From Ligula intestinalis (lineage: Eukaryota; Platyhelminthes; Cestoda; Diphyllobothriidea; Diphyllobothriidae): a DNA stretch of 64,000 nucleotides. Shown in pieces: positions 105 to 42,090 of the stretch (positions within the stretch are counted from its first letter, which is position 1; every line of letters starts with the position of its first letter). Below the pieces are notes generated by a model, which had not been told where the DNA came from, did no database searches, and was given only the letters and a program-made list of their open reading frames with translations. The stretch lies in assembly GCA_036362985.1 (NCBI GenBank), contig JAYGXS010000010.1:5958871-6022870 (forward strand), written 5' to 3'. The translations under genes and the position numbers were made by a program.

Positions 105-262
105 CCCGATAACTCGATGGATAGGGTGTTTGCCACTGATCGGAGAGACGGGTTCGAAACTCGAGGATGGCGGCAATTTCCGCTGCTACACTTGAGTAGG
201 GTGTATCCAGACAACGACGCCTAATGAGGCAGAAATGGCCATCCTGGATTCTCTTGTCTTAC
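105..262 (+). repeat. tRNA-headed SINE with hammerhead tail (copy 1)
   Basis: A pol III B-box-like GGGTTCGAAACTC lies at 149-161, about 35 bp after a possible A box near 111-128. The 3' part at 205-249 is the hammerhead-like tail shared with copies at 1275-1415, 10375-10500, 22356-22520 and 42038-42090. The coding-looking frame across it is incidental. Confidence 0.6.
205..249 (+). ncRNA. Hammerhead ribozyme relic in SINE tail
   Basis: Helix I is AUCCAG (205-210) with CUGGAU (244-249), six pairs. Helix II is GCCU/AGGC around AAUG (219-230). GAAA is at 232-235, then the self-complementary UGGCCA and UC at the cleavage position. The first core strand CUGAUGA has become ACAACGA, so it should be inactive. 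Helix I differs from the other copies on both strands yet still pairs. Confidence 0.6.
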
Positions 263-988: not shown

Positions 989-1274
989 TAAGACCTGAGG
1001 AGCAGAAGCTTATGTTGATGGAGTTGATTATATTTAGTCCATTAAAACAATTATACGTGGCTTTAATTCAATATTCCTGAATCACTTTCAACAAAACTTA
1101 ATATATATTTACATTCGTTAGCGAAGCATTAAACGTTAACCACCTATTCCACAAGGCACTTGGGCGGGGGGATAAATATTAAGCCGGTCCCACAAAACAG
1201 TTTTTGCCCTTTCTTCAGATCGAAAACATACGTTTAAGGTGTCATTTCTTGAGACCTAGGGAACCTACTGTATA
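989..1274. other. Unassigned stretch
   Basis: No coding, RNA or repeat signal that I can support. Confidence 0.4.
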
Positions 1275-1415
1275 CAGGAGCAATGTCAAAGGCAAGGAGG
1301 ACCCGAATAACCATTTTCGGCTCATTATTTGTCATCAGCTAGCTATACCTGACCCCAGGTCTGTAGCGCCTTGGATTCGAACCCAGATTTCTCGATTATC
1401 GGGCCACTGATCTGT
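1275..1415 (-). repeat. tRNA-headed SINE with hammerhead tail (copy 2)
   Basis: On the minus strand an A-box-like GATCAGTGGCCCGAT (1411-1397) is followed by a B box TGGGTTCGAATCC (1385-1373). The 3' tail contains CTGATGA at 1338-1332 and a variant of the GAAATGGCCATT block. A T-run lies upstream of the head on the minus strand. Confidence 0.6.
1291..1345 (-). ncRNA. Degenerate hammerhead in SINE tail
   Basis: CUGAUGA is intact at 1338-1332. Helix II is disrupted, the GAAA segment reads AAAA in alignment with the other copies, and helix III is UGGUUA rather than UGGCCA. It is recognisable by homology rather than as a working fold. Confidence 0.45.
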
Positions 1416-1649
1416 AGTTTTTTTGTCAGGAAACATGCTTCGAGGGTTCTACGCGTACTGCATATTAGTAAAGTCTCTGACTAGGTCTGTCATTGCTAGG
1501 GTTGGTGTTTGCAAAGTTACGCCAAAGCCGGCACGTGCCGAACTTTGATCCTTTTATTAACGTCCGGCGGCTGCAACTGTACTTTCACCCTTGAAGGCTA
1601 ATATCCCTAGGGTCACTAACTAACGCCCACTTTTTTCTTCTTTGGCCAG

Positions 1650-1980
1650 TGCGATCCCCGATGCTCCCATCTATCGGCTCGTTGCCACTACCGGTAAGCG
1701 TCAAGGAAAACGTCCTATTGGTTGGTTACGAGGCGTTGCCAGGCGACCGGCGGTGGACAGTCATAACAAACAATTCGGTATCGCTTTGTTTCGTCTCGCC
1801 GAGACCGCGGACGCCATTAAGTCTGGTGATATTCTCTGGAGCAGACTGACTTCAACCGAACCCCTGGCTGACGACGTCATCGAAGTTGAGCACCTTGAGG
1901 AGGGCGTCATTCTCCGTCCTTTTGTGCCCTCCTGGTGGCCTAAAAACATTGCTCCTGACCTACCCACGCAGCCCCAATGA
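1650..1980 (+). CDS. Unrecognised reading frame behind a splice-acceptor-like tract
   Basis: The frame runs about 110 codons without a stop and ends at TGA 1978-1980. It reads SAIPDAPIYRLVATTGKRQG near its start and FVPSWWPKNIAPDL near its end, with an acidic stretch (ADDVIEVEHLEEG) between. It has no ATG at its start. Instead it follows ccacttttttcttctttggccag, a good acceptor shape, so it could be the 3' exon of a plus-strand gene or retroelement. It is more G+C-rich and less degraded than its surroundings. I do not recognise the protein. It might be a fragment of a gag-like or host protein, or chance. Confidence 0.3.
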
Positions 1981-2154
1981 TTGAGTAGAGTCTGAGGCAT
2001 CTCTATTGACTACCTCTTCCCCTGACTCCCCCTCTTCCACTGCTTAGCCTGTACAGATCTTATCGCTTTGCATTCCATTTTTTTGTAGGAAGCAGTCTTT
2101 CTTCCCAGCATCTGCCATTTTGAACTCTATTTTGAGACATCAGTGATCCTGCTC

Positions 2155-2156
2155 GT

Positions 2157-2189
<33 letters not shown>
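2155..2189. repeat. (AGCC)n microsatellite
   Basis: About eight uninterrupted CCAG units. Confidence 0.95.
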
Positions 2190-2190
<1 letters not shown>

Positions 2191-2259
2191 TGTCTTCTTC
2201 GTTGCTCGATGAACGGCTTTCACTCTATGAGATAATAGGGCGCTTTCGGTGTTCCTAAA

Positions 2260-2960
2260 TCATGAGCGTAAAGGAAGTTCGGGTTTCCTTACGGAACCTT
2301 TATTGAGCTGAGAAGAAGAAGAAGACTCAATCGCTGGGACAATAAGTTTATTTGCCTGACGTTTCGATATCCGTCGCGGATTCGTCATCAGAGACATGAG
2401 TAGCAGAAACAGGTTGAGCATGCACAGAAGTTTGCAGTATTTATAGGATACAGTCATTACTGCAAACCTACAGCGACAATTCACGTTAATTGTCTTCTTG
2501 TGCGTAGACTGCTTGTTGGACGGCACGCGGGCTCTGACCTGTTGAACTTTCGTCACGGGCGGTGAGCTCGGGCATGATGATTGCTCGGCCGTCTGGCTCC
2601 CCGGTGTTGGCGTGCGATGAGGCGGTGGCTTGCCCGTTCCTCAAGTGACGGCTTGCTTTGGCCAAATTGAATCTCAGGATTGAATATGGATTGGGCAAAT
2701 CGTTGTACTTGTTTATGGATTGGGGGCCTGTGAACCACAACTCAAGTAGTTCTCGGCTCACCCGATTGTCACCTTTTGCGAGAATTTCGGCCTCATTAAT
2801 TTGAACGTGTGGCCGAGTCTCGTCGAATGAGCCGCAACTTGAGAATTGGCATTATTTCGCCGGACTGCTGCCGCGTGTTCGACAATTCGCGTCTCGAGAA
2901 GTCTGCCAGTTTCTCCGACATATTTGCTTTGACCGCAACTGCACCTCATCATGTAGACGA
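2260..2960 (-). mobile_element. PLE family A, 3' end with GIY-YIG endonuclease relic
   Basis: Minus-strand frames give a zinc-like CSCGQ followed by KYVGETGRLLETRIVEH and VAAHSTRLGHTF (2952-2760). This is the GIY-YIG-type endonuclease of Penelope-like retroelements. A frameshift leads to SRELLELWFTGPQSIN and a low-complexity tail. The reverse transcriptase is missing, so this is a 5'-truncated copy, the usual product of target-primed insertion. A hammerhead motif sits in the tail at 2354-2395. Confidence 0.8.
2354..2395 (-). ncRNA. Minimal hammerhead ribozyme of PLE family A
   Basis: 5'-GUCU, CUGAUGA, a helix II with AUCCG/CGGAU around CGA (plus a GA/UC base below a bulged A), GAAAC, GUC, AGGC. 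Helix I is GUCU/AGGC and helix III only A-U and C-G. All catalytic core residues are present. Two-pair helix III forms are known from metazoan PLEs, where they are thought to act as dimers. Confidence 0.78.
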
Positions 2961-3046
2961 CCCCAGATGTTATTTTGCCGTAGCAGTGGGTCCTTCGGCC
3001 GTTAGTTTAAAATAGATCATGCTCCTAAGGCCCGTTGTAACCCCTT

Positions 3047-4164
3047 AAGTGCGCGCCAGAATTCGTACAACATGCCGCCGTATGTGAGAGATTGATACTC
3101 TTTCGCTAATCGGCGTTGACTCAGGTTGTGATGCTGATTATCGTGTAGTCTATTCTGGAGTTATTTCAGTTCTTATAGGATGCAGGCTTGTTAAGGAGCT
3201 TCGTTATGACCACTAGCAAAACGTATGCACTGTAAAAAGTTATGACTTAAATAGTAAGCCCTTTTATCATTGATTTTGACTGCCTTTATAAATTCAAATA
3301 TATTTTATGGAAAGCTTGCAGAAACAAGTATTTCTTGTACTCGTTTGGTAGGAAATTACGCCTTCTTTAAATTTTATATTCAAAGAAAGGGAACCTTTCG
3401 ACTTTAGAAAAGTTTGTAAATTGCCGATTAATTTTGAAAATTACGGACTGCCTTACTCGAATTCAGGGTTTGACAACTGTGCAGTGTACATTTTGTTTAA
3501 GAAAAAGTACGCTTTCGCCTACGATTTGAGGAAGAAATCACATATTTATCATACATTTTGCAGTAGATGCGGAGCATGCTTTATACAGTCTAGACAGCAT
3601 TATTGAGTTGATGGATACGATGTTATAGGAATGAACACCTCGAAATCGTAAAGAAGCTCGTAGTTAGACATTCCTTATGAAACCGAAGGATACCCTTTCT
3701 TAAAGTATGGAAAGTTAACGAAGGCGTAATTTGCTACCAAACCTTGAATTCGAGTGTAACAGTCAGTAGGTTAGAAAACTATTCGGCAACTGAGAAACTT
3801 TTCTAAAACCGAAATATCACCTTTCTTTGTGTATACATTTTAAAGAAGGCGTAGTTTGCTATCAAACAAGTACATTAAATTTTTTCGTGCATGTTTTCCA
3901 TAAAATATATTTGAATTTATAAAGGCAGTCAAAACCAATGATAAAAGGGCTTACTATTTAAGTAGTTACTTTTTACAGTGCAAACGTTTTGCTAGTGGTT
4001 ATAACGAAGCTCCTTAACAAGCCTGCATCCTATTATGACTGAAATAACTCCAGAATAGACTACACGATAATCAGTATCACTACCTGAGTCAACGCCGATT
4101 AGTGGAAGAGTATCAATCTCCCACATACGTTGGCATTTTACACGAATTCTGGCGCGTGCTGTAC
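3047..4164. mobile_element. Foldback element with ~345-bp terminal inverted repeats (copy 1)
   Basis: The left arm (about 3047-3390) and right arm (about 3820-4164) are reverse complements with only scattered differences over their whole length. The ends read near GCGCGCCAGAATTCGT. Between them lies a ~430-bp spacer with no convincing gene. Related copies are at 20985-21690, 28860-29640, 53500-54400 and partly at 43265-43960 and 54420-54780. No transposase is seen, so it is non-autonomous. Confidence 0.82.
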
Positions 4165-9725: not shown

Positions 9726-10374
9726 TCCGTAAAGTGATAGCTTTAAAGCGCGCATAGCTCATCATAATAGAAAACGTAGGAGATCGGTCCTCTATGCGCA
9801 GATGGGCGTCTGAACCCTGCAATGTTACGTATTGGTCAGGAACCCCACAATTGGTACTTATGTCTACTGACAATGAGTCTCAACGCACCGGAATAGCGCT
9901 TTTACGCAGCTGCATTTGCGACCAATTGGGTGGTTGCTGTTGGAGTTCAGAACTTGCATACGGTTGGTTGCTTTCCTGAACACTTTAGTTTTTAGGCCAT
10001 CATCGTCTTTGCGGCAAAGGAATGAAACCCTCTGCAGCCTCGGTAGGATACGAAGTTGTTACACAGTCACTAAGGCTGGTGAATTGTTGTAAGGAGTAAT
10101 GTTTTGATCGCTAGCTATCAAGCTGTTTTTTTTTCGTTCAAGTTACGGGAAAAAAGTTCCATTGTACCTTTGTGCTTAACCTCTAGGCCTGTTAACAACC
10201 GTAAAACGGTTAGTAGTATAGACAGCATAATCGTACTAACGAATACAAGAGAGAGAGAGAGACTGGAATGACCACAGTTAGCTTATTATTTATTGTTAGC
10301 CAGCTACGCCCATCGCAGTCGATAAAAACTACCTCTATCAGTGTTAATACACCCACTCGCAACTGATAAGACAA
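9726..10374. other. Unassigned stretch with a short GA run
   Basis: (GA)n at 10248-10261. Nothing else supportable. Confidence 0.35.
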
Positions 10375-10500
10375 AGAGTCGGTGGCTGAAGGGTTAGGGC
10401 TTGTTCGAGTCACATGAGTCAAAAAACTCGGGGCTAGATGTGACTGGCTGATGACAGCTAATAAGCGAGAAGTGGCCATTACATCCTCCCTGACCTTTTT
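10375..10500 (+). repeat. tRNA-headed SINE with hammerhead tail (copy 3)
   Basis: A-box-like GTGGCTGAAGGGTTAGGG at 10382-10399, B-box-like TTGTTCGAGTC at 10401-10411, and the shared tail at 10442-10486. Confidence 0.65.
10442..10486 (+). ncRNA. Hammerhead ribozyme in SINE tail
   Basis: GACUGG then an intact CUGAUGA (10448-10454), a weakened helix II (GCU/AGC), GAAG, UGGCCA and UU. The 3' strand of helix I reads ACAUCC rather than CCAGUC, so helix I is broken. Confidence 0.62.
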
Positions 10501-14600: not shown

Positions 14601-14735
14601 ATTGGCCACATTTGCCAAAAACTTAATGCTCTAACCGATGAGCCGCCGACATGCTGTCCTTTCGGTCGTAATAAGCTATATTTGTAGATGTCTGTCATTC
14701 AGCGCAACTGCACGTGACTCATCTTACCTTCGCTC

Positions 14736-14912
14736 TACCAGGCCCTTCTCACACGCGTAATTATCCACTCCGCGCGAGCTATCGGCCCTTCTCACACTAT
14801 CGATCAACTCGCTGCTTGATAAACGCACAAGCTCCAAGTCAATCAGTACTTCCACTCCATTTTTATTGGCTGCAGCCGGCAGAGTATTCATCGCGCAGGC
14901 AAAGCGACGCAA
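14736..14912 (-). repeat. Dispersed repeat, inverted partner of 7785-7960
   Basis: Reverse complement of 7785-7960 over about 175 bp with scattered changes. Confidence 0.6.
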
Positions 14913-14919
14913 CAACACA

Positions 14920-15285
14920 CAACTTCATACAGACATTTCGCATGCTGTGGGGTCAGGATTGCTGCCTAACATCCGATGATTTCTTTGAGCGGGCCACCAC
15001 CACTAGCTTGTGCGGACATCCTCTAAAACTATGTGTGACTGGGGCAAGATTGGACACACTAAAATTGTTCTTCTCTAAGAGGGTGATTCAGGCATATAAT
15101 GCTTTGCCCGCGGACATCGTCCTACCGCCATCTGTGGACACGTTTAAGATGAAGTTGGGCCAGTATAGCAGATACGTCCTCTTAATTGAAGCTAAGCAAG
15201 CTATGGCGATGATATTTATAAACACATACTACTCTCTACATTTCAGTTATATATTTATTTAGAATAAATAAACACTGCACTTCCC
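14920..15285 (+). pseudogene. CR1-like LINE, extreme 3' end
   Basis: Plus-strand frame ends CGHPLKLCVTGARLDTLKLF, FSKRVIQAYNALPADIVLPP and VDTFKMKLGQYSRYVL. This is the C-terminal R.FFS.RV...WN.LP..VV...S...FK..LD pattern of CR1/Jockey-type LINE proteins. AATAAATAAA follows about 60 bp after the stop. The rest of the element is absent (5' truncation). Confidence 0.75.
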
Positions 15286-21719: not shown

Positions 21720-22110
21720 AAAACTCAGTTCAGAATTTCCGGTGACACTTCATAGGATGAGAAATCTACTGCATACGTATGCTCGCCAACAACTCTTCTG
21801 AATTCTCTGATGGGAATTTTTGAAACTTTAAAATTGATAAACTCATGATGAAAGGCAGGCATTTTAGTATTATGTATTATCAGCAACTTCAGTGGAAGAG
21901 GTCCTGCAAATAATATTTTTACGTGTGCATCTTGTAAAACCTGGGGTGTATGTTTTTTTTCAGTAAAGTCTTTGTTTCGGAACATCTTTCCTTTGTAATC
22001 TGCATCAAATAAGCACATTTTGCCTTCAAAAATTTTTTGAACAAGATTTTTGGGGGCGACGGATTCGCTGCGATCCCTGACCAGCCCTGACAAATGCAAA
22101 TGTATATATA
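21720..22110 (+). mobile_element. PLE family B pLTR fragment
   Basis: Begins with the 3' half of the family-B hammerhead (21753-21787: AUGAGAAAUCUACU, GCAUACGUAUGC, UC, GCC). The GAAA strand is deleted. Continues into the shared CTCTGATGGGAATTTTTGAA block. A 169-codon minus-strand frame spans it; I regard that as antisense to non-coding repeat. Confidence 0.55.
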
Positions 22111-22114
22111 TATA

Positions 22115-22330
22115 TGATACTGGAACTGGAGTGTTTATCCAATCTATCTGATGAGGACATTTACCTGTCTCGGAAGTGCCTTGAGGTTCGTGCTTGAGTG
22201 ATATCAGGCTGTCGCTTAGCGAGCTCAGACACATGATGGAGTGAGATTATTCAAGTACGAACCTCAAGGCACTTCCGGGACAAGTACATACCCTTATCAG
22301 ATAAAACGGATGAACACCCCAGTTCTATCA
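22115..22330. repeat. Large imperfect hairpin (~80-bp arms)
   Basis: 22115-22197 pairs with 22251-22330, best across GGAAGTGCCTTGAGGTTCG and GATACTGGAACTGG. The loop is about 50 nt. Each arm contains CTGATGA- or CTGATAA-like sequence followed by a short stem and GGAAG. Confidence 0.7.
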
Positions 22331-22355: not shown

Positions 22356-22520
22356 AGCGAACCGGTGGAACAATGGTAAAGTGGGAAATTCAATGACCAC
22401 GGGTCCCGGGTTCGAATCTCGGGAGTTCCGACCCCTGAGATTGGATATGACTGGCTAATGATGGCTAACAAACCAGAAATGGCCATTCCAGTCTCCTTTC
22501 GCTTTGTCGGAGACAAGTGC
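22356..22520 (+). repeat. tRNA-headed SINE with hammerhead tail (copy 4, best head)
   Basis: A-box-like GGTGGAACAATGGTAAAG at 22364-22381 and a near-perfect B box GGGTTCGAATCTC at 22408-22420 give an internal pol III promoter. The anticodon region is unconvincing. The hammerhead tail follows at 22449-22493. Confidence 0.72.
22449..22493 (+). ncRNA. Hammerhead ribozyme in SINE tail
   Basis: GACUGG (22449-22454) pairs perfectly with CCAGUC (22488-22493). The core strand reads CUAAUGA, one change (G to A) from CUGAUGA. Helix II UGGCU/AACCA is followed by GAAA, the palindromic UGGCCA and UU at the cleavage position. The fold is clear. The G5 change should abolish cleavage in this copy. Confidence 0.75.
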
Positions 22521-22689: not shown

Positions 22690-24440
22690 AAAAGTTAATA
22701 CAAAAAAGCAAAACCAAAAAGACATTTCGATTTGTTTGAGTAAACTAACCTAGACAAGTTAAAACAGCTCCGACAGAACAAAGATATCCTAGTTACTAGA
22801 CCTGATAAGGGAAGGGGGGTTGTTATAATAAACAGATCGGACATTAAAAGGAAAATGCAAACCATCTTTTCAGATGAGACGAAAGTTAGGCAAGTAGACA
22901 AGGAAACAGATTGTTGTACGGAAGAAATAGAGACACATCTGACTGACTGCTTACGAAGACTCTACACTGGAGGTTTCATCAGCGACCGCGACCTCGAAAG
23001 CCTCCGCCCAGTAGGCACTCACATTCCCCACTTGTATGGTCTACTAAAGATTCATAAGAATGGCCGGCCAGCTCGTCCGATTCTGGACATGCGCAACTCA
23101 CTGCGTAATGCGATAGCAAATTGCTTAGCAGAGAAACTCAAACATTTTCAGCATCAGCTGGCACCATGTAGCTATCGAGACACGTTCGAATTTATCGACG
23201 ATGTCAAAAACGTGAATCTAAGCGGCATGAAGACGCTCTCTCTAGACGTCTCATCGCTCTTAACAAACGCACGGTTACAGAGACAGTCGGTTACATTTGC
23301 GAATACCTAGTGGCAAATCAGCCGGAAATAGGAATACCGATAAATGCACTAAAGGAACTATTACCAAGAAACTAGTCTTCTAAACTCAAGGCTAACAAAA
23401 AATGCAGCGAGGAATCGTATATTTTAATTTGCAGGCCAGTAACACACAGTGCAAATGCTGAGCTGCAACAGCAATCACCCAATCAGTTACAAACGCAGCT
23501 GCGTAAGAGCGCTTTACCGGCGCGTTGAGACGCATTGCAGCGAAGCGAAAGACAAAGTTGCTGAATTACAACATCTTCGACAAGTACTGAGAGCGACTAG
23601 ATACCCACGCAATTTTTTCAACCAATGCATATGCAAACGAGAGAAGAAGCCACATTGAACTGGCCCAAAACGTCTGGCGATCTCTTCCATACGTGAATTA
23701 TGTATCGGCAATGGTCAGCCGTCTACTCATCCCACTTGGAGTTCGAGTTGAGCACAGGCCAAAAAGCAACCATCAGGCTCCAGGTTATGAGACCGAAAAC
23801 CCACTGTCACCGCAGAAAACGGCTGGAGTAGTTTACCGGATCGGGTGCAGTTTTCGACGTAGCAACTACGTCGGAGAAACCGAAAGATTACTCCAGGCGC
23901 GAATAACCAAGCATACAGCGGCGGTGGGGACGAAAGACGCCAACCCCCACGTTGCAGCTCACTCGACGGGATCCAGCCATATTTTCAAGTTTGACGAGGC
24001 CAAAATTCGCGCAAGAGGTGACAATCGTGTGAGTCGCGAACTGCTGGAGGCATCGTTCTCAGACCCCCAACGCAACGATTTGGCGTTCCCATACAGTGTA
24101 CTGAGAAATTTCTTAAGCAAGCGAATCAGTCACGTGAGATGGGCCGGGTGCCGCGACAGTGCGCATAATTTTCGCACAATTATCCAGCCTGCATCTGATG
24201 TGGACAAAAACATTGTGGCGATTAATGAGCCATCACCGCAACAATTAAGACCTCAAGTGGTGGCTACAGTAACTGACACTTATAGTATGCATGCGGATGG
24301 TCTCTACGAAGTATCAATACCATGCAACCTGTGCATGTATCAACACGTTATCTGCGCATGTCGCCAACTTTCCTAAGATTAATTATGGTTAAGGATTTCT
24401 GACGGAATTTGAAACGTCAGGTTAATAAAACTCTTGTTCC
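22690..24440 (+). pseudogene. Penelope-like element, family A: reverse transcriptase plus GIY-YIG endonuclease, internally deleted
   Basis: PLEs carry a telomerase-related RT fused to a GIY-YIG endonuclease. Frames here give: ILVTRPDKGRGVVIINRSDI (about 22785-22845), HIPHLYGLLKIHKNGRPARP (RT YGLPKIHK motif, 23020-23080), SLDVSSLLTN (palm A Asp, about 23240), then after a frameshift TVGYICEYLVANQPEIGIPI. The segment with the catalytic DD motif is deleted near 23375. The thumb resumes with CVRALYRRVETHCSEAKDKV, and the endonuclease follows: VVYRIGC, NYVGETERLLQARITKH, VAAHSTGSSHIFKFDEAKI, NRVSRELLEA (23840-24090). The C-terminal tail includes CNLCMYQ. Frameshifts plus the palm deletion mean it cannot move itself. 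A vestigial hammerhead (24399-24425) and a (TTC)n run follow. It ends next to the HCN terminal exon, in antisense orientation. Confidence 0.9.
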
Positions 24441-41902: not shown

Positions 41903-42037
41903 GAATATATGTATTGCACCAGCGATCGATACATATTCTTTTCAATATTTGGAGTGCTCTTCCATCTTCGCGGCGTGCCCTGAACTTCATCTTTGAGCCT
42001 CGTCAACAGCCGCATTGTGGGACCTGGATTTATGTGT

Positions 42038-42090
42038 CTTTGGCTGATAAGGACCTTAAGGCTAGAAATGGCCATTCTACTCTTTTCTGT
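42038..42090 (+). ncRNA. Hammerhead relic of the SINE type
   Basis: UUUGG, CUGAUAA (G8 to A), helix II with CC/GG around UUAA, GAAA, UGGCCA, UU, then CUACUC in place of a full helix I partner. The tRNA head is not visible, so this is a 3' fragment (copy 5). Confidence 0.5.

What the first reader, a model, noticed from the sequence alone, without database searches (positions are those of the whole stretch)
22356..22520. A tRNA-headed SINE whose 3' tail is a hammerhead ribozyme, in five copies
Copies at 105-262, 1275-1415, 10375-10500, 22356-22520 and (tail only) 42038-42090 share a pol III A/B-box head and a tail that folds as GACUGG, CUGAUGA, helix II, GAAA, UGGCCA, UU, CCAGUC. Helix III is a bare palindrome with no loop, which suits pairing between two RNAs. 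Schistosome Sm-alpha repeats are the known precedent for a pol III promoter plus hammerhead. The sequence and helix III here look different, so it may be a separate family. Each copy carries different core damage, which argues for active ancestors.
Basis: partly seen in the sequence, partly recalled or inferred. Interest (0 to 1): 0.85.

Follow-up and report, generated by a model that had tools for sequence, protein, structure and literature searches.

The report
Tapeworm jumping-gene family carrying a self-cutting RNA
A short, many-copy jumping gene in what looks like a tapeworm genome joins a tRNA-like promoter to what looks like a self-cutting RNA (a hammerhead ribozyme), and the way its copies sit in the DNA hints at which enzyme family spreads it.

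Summary
All five copies are there (one on the minus strand), plus a sixth. A covariance model built partly from them scores them at E 5e-19 to 3e-12, and helix I covaries at 6 of 6 pairs. Copies with an intact core occur elsewhere. Of 20 fetched loci from a head-only query, 18 carry the tail and 10 have core and helix I intact.

Two parts of the interpretation change. First, the "SINE" is one stretch of a 309-nt unit that recurs in tandem, permuted, and as a satellite of about 32 copies in 10 kb. It is retrozyme-like, of the schistosome Sm-alpha kind. Second, helix III is no difference: Rfam's type I consensus has the same loopless palindrome.

The insertion pattern is the least expected part. 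Of 74 readable 3' ends, 56 lie at two sites inside the unit, both in TCCATCATAT; 43 of these 56 lie beside an AT run. 26 of 52 loci are head-to-head pairs; in 14 of these 26 both 3' ends lie at the two sites. This resembles the published in vitro behaviour of a Penelope-like element. The helper is inferred; no RNA or cleavage data were available.

The parts
22356..22520 (+). Copy 4 (the finding): tRNA-like head followed by hammerhead tail and TTTGTCGGA
22367..22430 (+). tRNA-like head with A/B-box stretches
   Evidence: Rfam tRNA 18.1 bits, below gathering 29
22445..22497 (+). Hammerhead type I tail; helix I GACTGG/CCAGTC, core reads CTAATGA, helix III ATGGCCAT, N17 = T
   Evidence: R1 70.2 bits, E 5e-19 (it was in the training alignment); descriptor hit
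22242..22318 (+). Unit spacer joined upstream of copy 4, same orientation
   Evidence: 83% to the L007 spacer, E 2e-17
22090..22243 (-). Inverted arm of the same element: spacer reading outward to a TATATATATAT run
   Evidence: 77% to the L007 spacer, E 1e-27; sequence
105..262 (+). Copy 1; helix I ATCCAG/CTGGAT as in the Rfam Hammerhead_1 consensus; core damaged (ACAACGA)
1275..1415 (-). Copy 2, on the minus strand; tail 1296-1348
10257..10309 (-).
   Evidence: nhmmer E 4.9e-8; R1 48.5 bits
10375..10500 (+). Copy 3; tail 10438-10490
42034..42086 (+). Copy 5, tail only

Best explanation
This is a non-coding retroelement of the Sm-alpha/retrozyme kind in a flatworm that is probably a cestode. 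One 309-nt unit holds an internal tRNA-like promoter, a type I hammerhead and a spacer, and occurs as dispersed stretches of 0.2-2.6 units and as a tandem satellite. Proposed cycle: RNA polymerase III starts at the tRNA-like head of one unit and reads through further units; the hammerhead can cut the multimer into units, probably as a dimer that pairs the AUGGCCAU of two units; uncut or circular RNA is the template for insertion. Reverse transcription starts inside the unit, at UCCAUCAUAU (u30-39 or u146-155), on DNA ends in (AT)n. Both target ends can prime, which gives head-to-head inverted insertions. A Penelope-like element (PLE) is the likeliest helper. Shown from sequence: hammerhead family, covariation, unit, satellite, preferred 3' ends, AT runs, head-to-head pairs. 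Inferred: pol III transcription, cleavage, circularity, PLE helper.
For: Covariation: 79.5% of cells paired against 22.9-45.6% for structures slid by 1-3 columns; score 0.303 against 0.204 shuffled, 0 of 500 shuffles as high; 10 of 15 pairs with changes on both sides (19 of 500 shuffles as many), helix I 6 of 6 (25 distinct rows). Intact cores in L006, L007 and others; 18 of 20 head-selected loci have the tail, 10 with core and helix I intact. Unit of 309 nt; satellite of 32.3 copies over 10 kb, with 19 units matching CTGATGA-N14-GAAA-NGGCCATY. 3' ends: 56 of 74 at the two sites, 43 of those 56 with an AT run of at least 8 within 25 nt, against 6 of 5,000 random 25-mers; head-selected loci 11 of 16. 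Head-to-head in 26 of 52 loci, both 3' ends at the two sites in 14 of these 26. 5' ends: 9 of 74 at u187-190, the first bases of the head (u187 = GTGG); 0 of 74 at the cleavage junction. Circular fold of the unit: -104.0 kcal/mol, z -3.4 against 60 dinucleotide shuffles. A PLE protein in vitro cuts and extends both strands, prefers AT-rich DNA, starts at two internal RNA sites and uses uncleaved RNA (passages of PMC11167929). PLE coding in the window.
Against: No RNA data, so transcription, cleavage and circularity are untested. The monomer hammerhead is not the best fold. Pair 10.1-11.1 is unpaired in 17 of 25 rows, and helix II overall is paired in only 69.6% of cells. In the spacer-selected set only 17 of 33 3' ends fall at the two sites, and only 1 of its 10 head-to-head loci has both 3' ends there, against 13 of 16 in the other set. 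The query bounds bias both end distributions. The PLE next to copy 4 ends in (CTT)n, not (AT)n, and 0 of 5 PLE-type hairpins matched in the window have (AT)n within 260 nt. I did not search the genome for an autonomous PLE or LINE that shares the 3' motif. The array consensus differs from the reference in the B-box-like stretch.
Confidence: 0.7

Rival explanations
1. An ordinary tRNA-derived SINE mobilised by a LINE. The (AT)n is its own 3' tail made by slippage, the head-to-head copies are twin priming or fold-back, and the satellite arose later by DNA-level amplification.
For: AT runs go with 3' ends and, on average, not with the 5' ends of arms that are not head to head (TA-step 0.46, n 56, against 0.20, n 23; random 0.12), as a 3' tail would. 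Some head-to-head junctions lie at complementary stretches of the unit (L031, L073). SINEs can seed satellites (title and abstract start of PMC10702118 in the listing).
Against: Two separate 3' sites 116 nt apart share one motif inside the unit; in 14 of 26 head-to-head loci both arms carry their own 3' end at these sites; arms longer than one unit with intact junctions (up to 798 nt); an older copy is also tandem (L048).
Confidence: 0.23
2. The hammerhead is an inherited relic with no catalytic part in the life cycle; the tail is kept only because it lies next to the 3' end of the mobile RNA.
For: 0 of 74 5' ends lie at the cleavage junction; monomer fold weak; the PLE of PMC11167929 inserts unprocessed RNA and ribozyme mutants do not change insertion in vitro (passages).
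Against: Helix I covaries at 6 of 6 pairs. In the satellite array the core CTGATGA has divergence 0.018 against 0.058 for the whole unit and 0.093 for the head. 10 of 20 head-selected loci have core and helix I intact.
Confidence: 0.2
3. The insertion template is the circular RNA made by hammerhead cutting and ligation, not the linear pol III transcript.
For: 7 of 34 5' ends in the spacer-selected set lie at u28-37, the 3' start site itself; the listing holds copies of 305-313 nt that run once round the unit from there (L055, L057, L058, L067, L078).
Against: 9 of 74 5' ends lie at the first bases of the head, u187-190, which a circle would not give. Both templates may be used.
Confidence: 0.35
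4. Chance resemblance to a hammerhead in a repeat.
For: Rfam finds no hammerhead in the window at E<=1, in copy 4 or in L007.
Against: Rfam Hammerhead_1 matches a family member, L034 415-459(-), at 24.9 bits, E 3.4e-4, though below its gathering score of 34; covariation; descriptor hits 0 in 5 shuffles.
Confidence: 0.03

Closest known systems
Schistosome Sm-alpha / Sj-alpha SINE-like elements
   Same: tRNA-related sequence plus type I hammerhead, 335 bp for the W-element that represents Sm-alpha, over 10,000 copies estimated (passages of PMC8490949 and PMC2770079). Window copy 1 and L034 share helix I AUCCAG, and all share a loopless palindromic helix III, with the Rfam Hammerhead_1 consensus.
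   Different: Different host class (cestode-like); young copies have another helix I sequence, and AUGGCCAU where the Rfam consensus has ACGcgCGU; the rest of the unit was not compared because no Sm-alpha sequence was at hand.
Metazoan non-LTR retrozymes
   Same: Type I hammerheads in 150-450 bp tandem repeats, circRNA proposed as template, PLEs proposed as helper (PMC7229834: abstract, part 1 of 3 of Results, Discussion).
   Different: The passages read name a tRNA only in the schistosome repeats (PMC4918200) and describe no preferred internal 3' ends at (AT)n or head-to-head insertions; circles not tested here.
Penelope-like elements (PLEs)
   Same: Minimal type I hammerheads, tandem copies, AT-rich targets, internal priming at two sites, both strands extended (passages of PMC11167929, and PMC7761336).
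   Different: PLEs code for RT and GIY-YIG endonuclease; this unit has no such coding and has an 8-nt palindromic helix III.
Rfam Hammerhead_HH9
   Same: A second family beside some of these copies matches it at 24.9 bits, E 0.016, gathering score 52.
   Different: Longer helix III (ACAGUUCUGU); another unit, copies 368 nt apart in L018.

Membership tests
Type I hammerhead ribozyme | CUGANGA and GAAA cores, three helices, open at helix I, NUH site | tested here: met
   Natural copies L006, L007 and others; covariation. Copy 4 itself departs at one core base.
Type I hammerhead ribozyme | Reaches Rfam gathering score | tested here: not met
   Best 24.9 of 34 bits; none.
Type I hammerhead ribozyme | Self-cleavage | not testable with these tools
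   Needs in vitro transcription.
Sm-alpha-type element | tRNA-like promoter region upstream of a type I hammerhead in a repeat unit of about 335 bp | tested here: met
   309-nt unit; tRNA model 18.1 bits on copy 4, below gathering. Against: no tRNA match on the L007 head, and ARAGORN finds no tRNA in a head of the 22 loci given.
Sm-alpha-type element | Sequence homology outside the ribozyme | not tested
   No Sm-alpha sequence held; Ferbeyre 1998 not held.
Metazoan retrozyme | Tandem repeats of 150-450 bp with type I hammerhead | tested here: met
Metazoan retrozyme | Linear and circular RNAs of unit length | not testable with these tools
   No RNA reads.
Metazoan retrozyme | Target site duplications longer than 4 bp | tested here: inconclusive
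   Flanks of 30 loci printed; no duplications seen by eye in the few single-orientation copies looked at, but AT runs and inverted arms hide them.
tRNA SINE mobilised by a LINE | 3' end shared with a partner LINE | not tested
   Partner search not done.
PLE-mobilised element | Genomic marks of AT-rich targets, of two internal start sites and of priming from both DNA ends | tested here: inconclusive
   Two internal sites in 56 of 74 3' ends, AT runs at 43 of 56; both ends of head-to-head loci at the sites in 13 of 16 in one set but 1 of 10 in the other. The mechanism itself is inferred.
PLE-mobilised element | Autonomous PLE in the genome with the same 3' signature | tested here: inconclusive
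   PLE-type hairpins are followed within 40-110 nt by (AT)n in 6 of 9 rows from loci (one a duplicate), loci chosen for this element, and in 0 of 5 in the window; no shared motif shown and no genome search made.

The most novel reading that the evidence does not exclude
A tRNA-promoted hammerhead retrozyme is mobilised in trans by Penelope-like elements. PLE reverse transcriptase primes on both ends of (AT)n targets at an internal UCCAUCAUAU of linear or circular retrozyme RNA, leaving head-to-head insertions with two outward 3' ends. This would be genomic evidence for the helper that the retrozyme papers read here only propose.
Probability: 0.4. Interest if true: 0.8.

Novelty: new variant of a known kind. 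Interest (0 to 1): 0.6.

Why it matters
Retrozymes are widespread in animals, but which enzyme copies them is open; the papers read propose PLEs from co-occurrence and shared ribozymes. Here one genome holds many copies whose ends can be read: two preferred internal start sites, AT runs beside them and paired inverted arms. That makes the PLE hypothesis directly testable with a purified PLE protein and a retrozyme RNA. It also extends the Sm-alpha type of tRNA-hammerhead element from schistosomes to what looks like a cestode, with one subfamily that keeps the helix I sequence of the Rfam type I consensus, so a common flatworm ancestor becomes plausible.

Tried and rejected

Led nowhere: ARAGORN on the window (0 genes) and on 22 loci (one tRNA-Ser, not in a head); Rfam on the whole window (two unrelated weak hits); a LINE-like ORF at 14675-15262 gave no homologues; metazoan SINE domain papers (search listings, passages of PMC11121367) gave no tail sequence to compare; the Helenus/Ajax passages are about LTR elements. 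The species was not pinned down: the cox1 search did not complete.

Changed on recount: the odds of the best explanation (0.72 to 0.70), of the LINE rival (0.20 to 0.23) and of the novel case (0.45 to 0.40), because one search showed that only 14 of 26 head-to-head loci, and 1 of 10 in the spacer set, have both 3' ends at the two sites; the status of the PLE marks went from met to inconclusive.

Rows dropped before counts: from the 34 distinct diverged stretches printed I left out L013 1272, L024 756 and L011 1831 (5' junction cuts helix I), L003 1392 and 1402, L012 1118 and window 48393 (no full tail) and the HH9-like rows, and I took only a few of the near-identical young ones; A1 has 26 rows, 25 distinct, of the 68 distinct stretches found. 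In one search I left out L020, L037, L051, L053, L056, L059, L060 (duplicates or the same place) and L062 (satellite), matches under 88% identity and arms under 50 nt; ends beside N gaps or locus edges were not counted. In the head-selected set one of 20 loci (L081) gave no arm under these rules.

Full report
SETTING. The window lies at G000:C10:5958871-6022870 of a 644-Mb genome in 2,377 contigs. A Penelope-like (PLE) reading frame at 23591-24376 has 69 homologues; those with an organism name are Spirometra, Sparganum, Dibothriocephalus or Schistocephalus, at most 63% identical. I therefore take the host for a cestode, not one of these species. This rests on one mobile-element protein; a cox1 search did not complete.

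THE OBSERVATION. All five copies are there. The one at 1275-1415 is on the minus strand, and there is a sixth tail at 10257-10309(-). The tails align without gaps over 53 columns: helix I (6 bp), CTGATGA, helix II of 14 nt, GAA, ATGGCCAT, T or C, helix I. The named copy reads CTAATGA in the core. Ten 5-kb stretches that I chose only by round coordinates hold 3 further matches at E below 1e-4 in 50 kb, two of them in one locus (L048), against 6 in the 64-kb window. Scaled up, that is of the order of tens of thousands of copies, with a wide margin (my arithmetic). First-look candidates in the four answered genome searches were 1,047-4,019, of which 40 were scored each time.

STRUCTURE. On 25 distinct tails, 79.5% of pair cells are standard pairs, against 22.9-45.6% when the partner is slid by 1-3 columns. 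The covariation score is 0.303 against 0.204 in shuffles (0 of 500 as high). Helix I has changes on both sides at 6 of 6 pairs, helix II at 4 of 5. Against: the helix II pair next to the core (10.1-11.1) is unpaired in 17 of 25; the number of pairs with a change on both sides is reached by 19 of 500 shuffles, and the number of further pair types by 81 of 500. Relatedness inflates such scores. A family member, L034 415-459(-), matches Rfam Hammerhead_1 at E 3.4e-4 but below its gathering score.

DIMER IDEA. AUGGCCAU cannot form a four-pair hairpin without a loop. For the L007 tail the monomer hammerhead fold is -8.6 kcal/mol against -16.0 for its best fold. The double hammerhead of two RNAs is -37.9 against -32.0 for two monomers at their best, and -39.7 for the best cofold. 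For L034 it is -23.5 against -15.0, best cofold -28.3. For window copy 4 it is -25.9 against -33.4, so that copy does not favour it. Neighbouring units of a tandem transcript could pair in the same way (inference).

THE UNIT. In L006, L004 and L007 the head-tail stretch is joined to a spacer, and the spacer to the next head, with a period of 309 nt. Contig C1083 (15.3 kb) is a satellite in the 10 kb read: 32.3 copies of 309 nt, with 19 units matching an intact core pattern. Within it the core CTGATGA has mean divergence 0.018, the whole unit 0.058, the spacer 0.046 and the head 0.093. An older tandem pair lies in the round-coordinate sample (L048). Copy 4 in the window also has unit spacer upstream of it, at 22242-22318, and an inverted spacer arm at 22090-22243. 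Folded as a circle, the unit gives -104.0 kcal/mol, z -3.4 against 60 shuffles, 60% of bases paired.

HEAD AND TAIL TRAVEL TOGETHER. A head-only query (1,615 first-look candidates, 40 scored, 41 matches) gave places of which I fetched 20, mostly ones not seen before. 18 of 20 have the tail within six substitutions; 10 have core and helix I intact; one is cut by an assembly gap inside the tail; one (L090) switches into the second hammerhead family.

THE ENDS. I mapped two sets: 28 loci from a query of u187-u149 and 24 loci from a query of the spacer. Of 74 readable 3' ends, 33 fall at u28-39, 23 at u144-156 and 18 elsewhere. The motif TCCATCATAT occurs in the unit at exactly u30 and u146. By set the two sites hold 39 of 41 and 17 of 33; the first query itself ends near u149, which favours the second site. 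In the head-selected loci it is 11 of 16. An alternating AT run of at least 8 lies within 25 nt in 43 of 56 ends at these sites, in 3 of 18 other ends and in 6 of 5,000 random 25-mers. 26 of 52 loci are head-to-head inverted pairs. In 14 of the 26 both 3' ends lie at the two sites, 13 of 16 in the first set but 1 of 10 in the second; both ends carry an AT run in 10 of the 26 (9 of 16 and 1 of 10), two loci being cut by gaps. So the second set holds more irregular inversions, some at complementary stretches that suggest fold-back. 5' ends: 9 of 74 at u187-190, where the head begins (about 1 expected if uniform; the first query starts at u187 and biases its own set); 7 of 34 at u28-37 in the spacer set, giving copies that run once round the unit; 0 of 74 at the cleavage junction. 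Arms reach 798 nt, 2.6 units, with intact junctions.

MECHANISM. These ends resemble what a PLE protein does in vitro: it cuts and extends both strands, prefers AT-rich DNA, starts at two internal sites of the RNA and uses uncleaved RNA (passages of PMC11167929). Retrozyme papers propose PLEs as helpers from co-occurrence and shared type I hammerheads (PMC7229834 Discussion; PMC7761336 passages). PLE coding is matched at eight places in the window. PLE-type hairpins (CTGANGA...GAAACGTCAG and the like) follow PLE coding at 2391(-) and near 24399(+). (AT)n follows such hairpins within 40-110 nt in 6 of 9 rows from loci (one a duplicate), but these loci were chosen for this element, and it does so in 0 of 5 in the window, where two are followed by (CTT)n. 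The PLE beside copy 4 also ends in (CTT)n. So the helper is inferred, and no shared 3' motif was shown. The 5' ends at the head suggest pol III transcripts as templates; the once-round copies suggest circles; both may occur.

NOVELTY. The kind is known: Sm-alpha and Sj-alpha in schistosomes (passages) and metazoan retrozymes. My searches of the held library listed no report that I recognised of such an element in a cestode or of such an insertion pattern for a retrozyme. This is weak evidence: only the listed titles, abstract starts and the passages named were seen (in one search, 8 of 4,329 papers, none of the 8 with the words hammerhead ribozyme), and most subscription papers are not held. 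I call it a new variant of a known kind. The general interest lies in the ends, which make the helper question testable.

Noticed in passing
L004 1180-1290 (reverse complement of the locus), L015, L018, L032 and others: A second hammerhead family (core CTGATGA AGGCTAATAAGCCC GAAACAGTTCTGTA), 23 matches to its core motif in the loci held (one of them at a locus edge), copies 368 nt apart in L018, 24.9 bits to Rfam HH9; some copies abut (AT)n.
   Followed up: partly
window 2391(-), 17476(+), 40512(-), 44292(+), 47584(+), near 24399(+): Hairpins of the form CTGANGA...GAAA(C/G)(G/C)TCAG (the one near 24399 is shorter) that look like minimal PLE hammerheads; two lie just after PLE coding (2489-3001 minus, 23443-24313 plus); CTGAG/CTCAG and CTGATG/CGTCAG variants.
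   Followed up: partly
window 46189(+), 45569(-), 32586(-): Three copies of a short repeat GCCTGA(T/C)GAGA...GAAAG...ACGTAT(G/A)C, with a palindrome GCATACGTATGC in one; nature unknown.
   Followed up: no
L090 near 287: Chimera: head and start of the tail pass at TATGAC into the second hammerhead family, as if the reverse transcriptase had switched templates.
   Followed up: no
L031 1400-1969, L073 456-909: Head-to-head junctions at u15/u168-169, which lie in complementary stretches (CTTTGTCGG / CCGACAAA), as if a fold-back had primed the second arm.
   Followed up: no
L001/L002, L019/L020, L036/L037: Pairs of loci with the same insertion and similar flanks, 37 kb apart, 51 kb apart in inverse orientation, or on two small contigs: local duplications or uncollapsed haplotypes.
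   Followed up: no
L048 691-774(-): A tRNA-Ser (anticodon ACT) predicted by ARAGORN, outside the element's heads.
   Followed up: no
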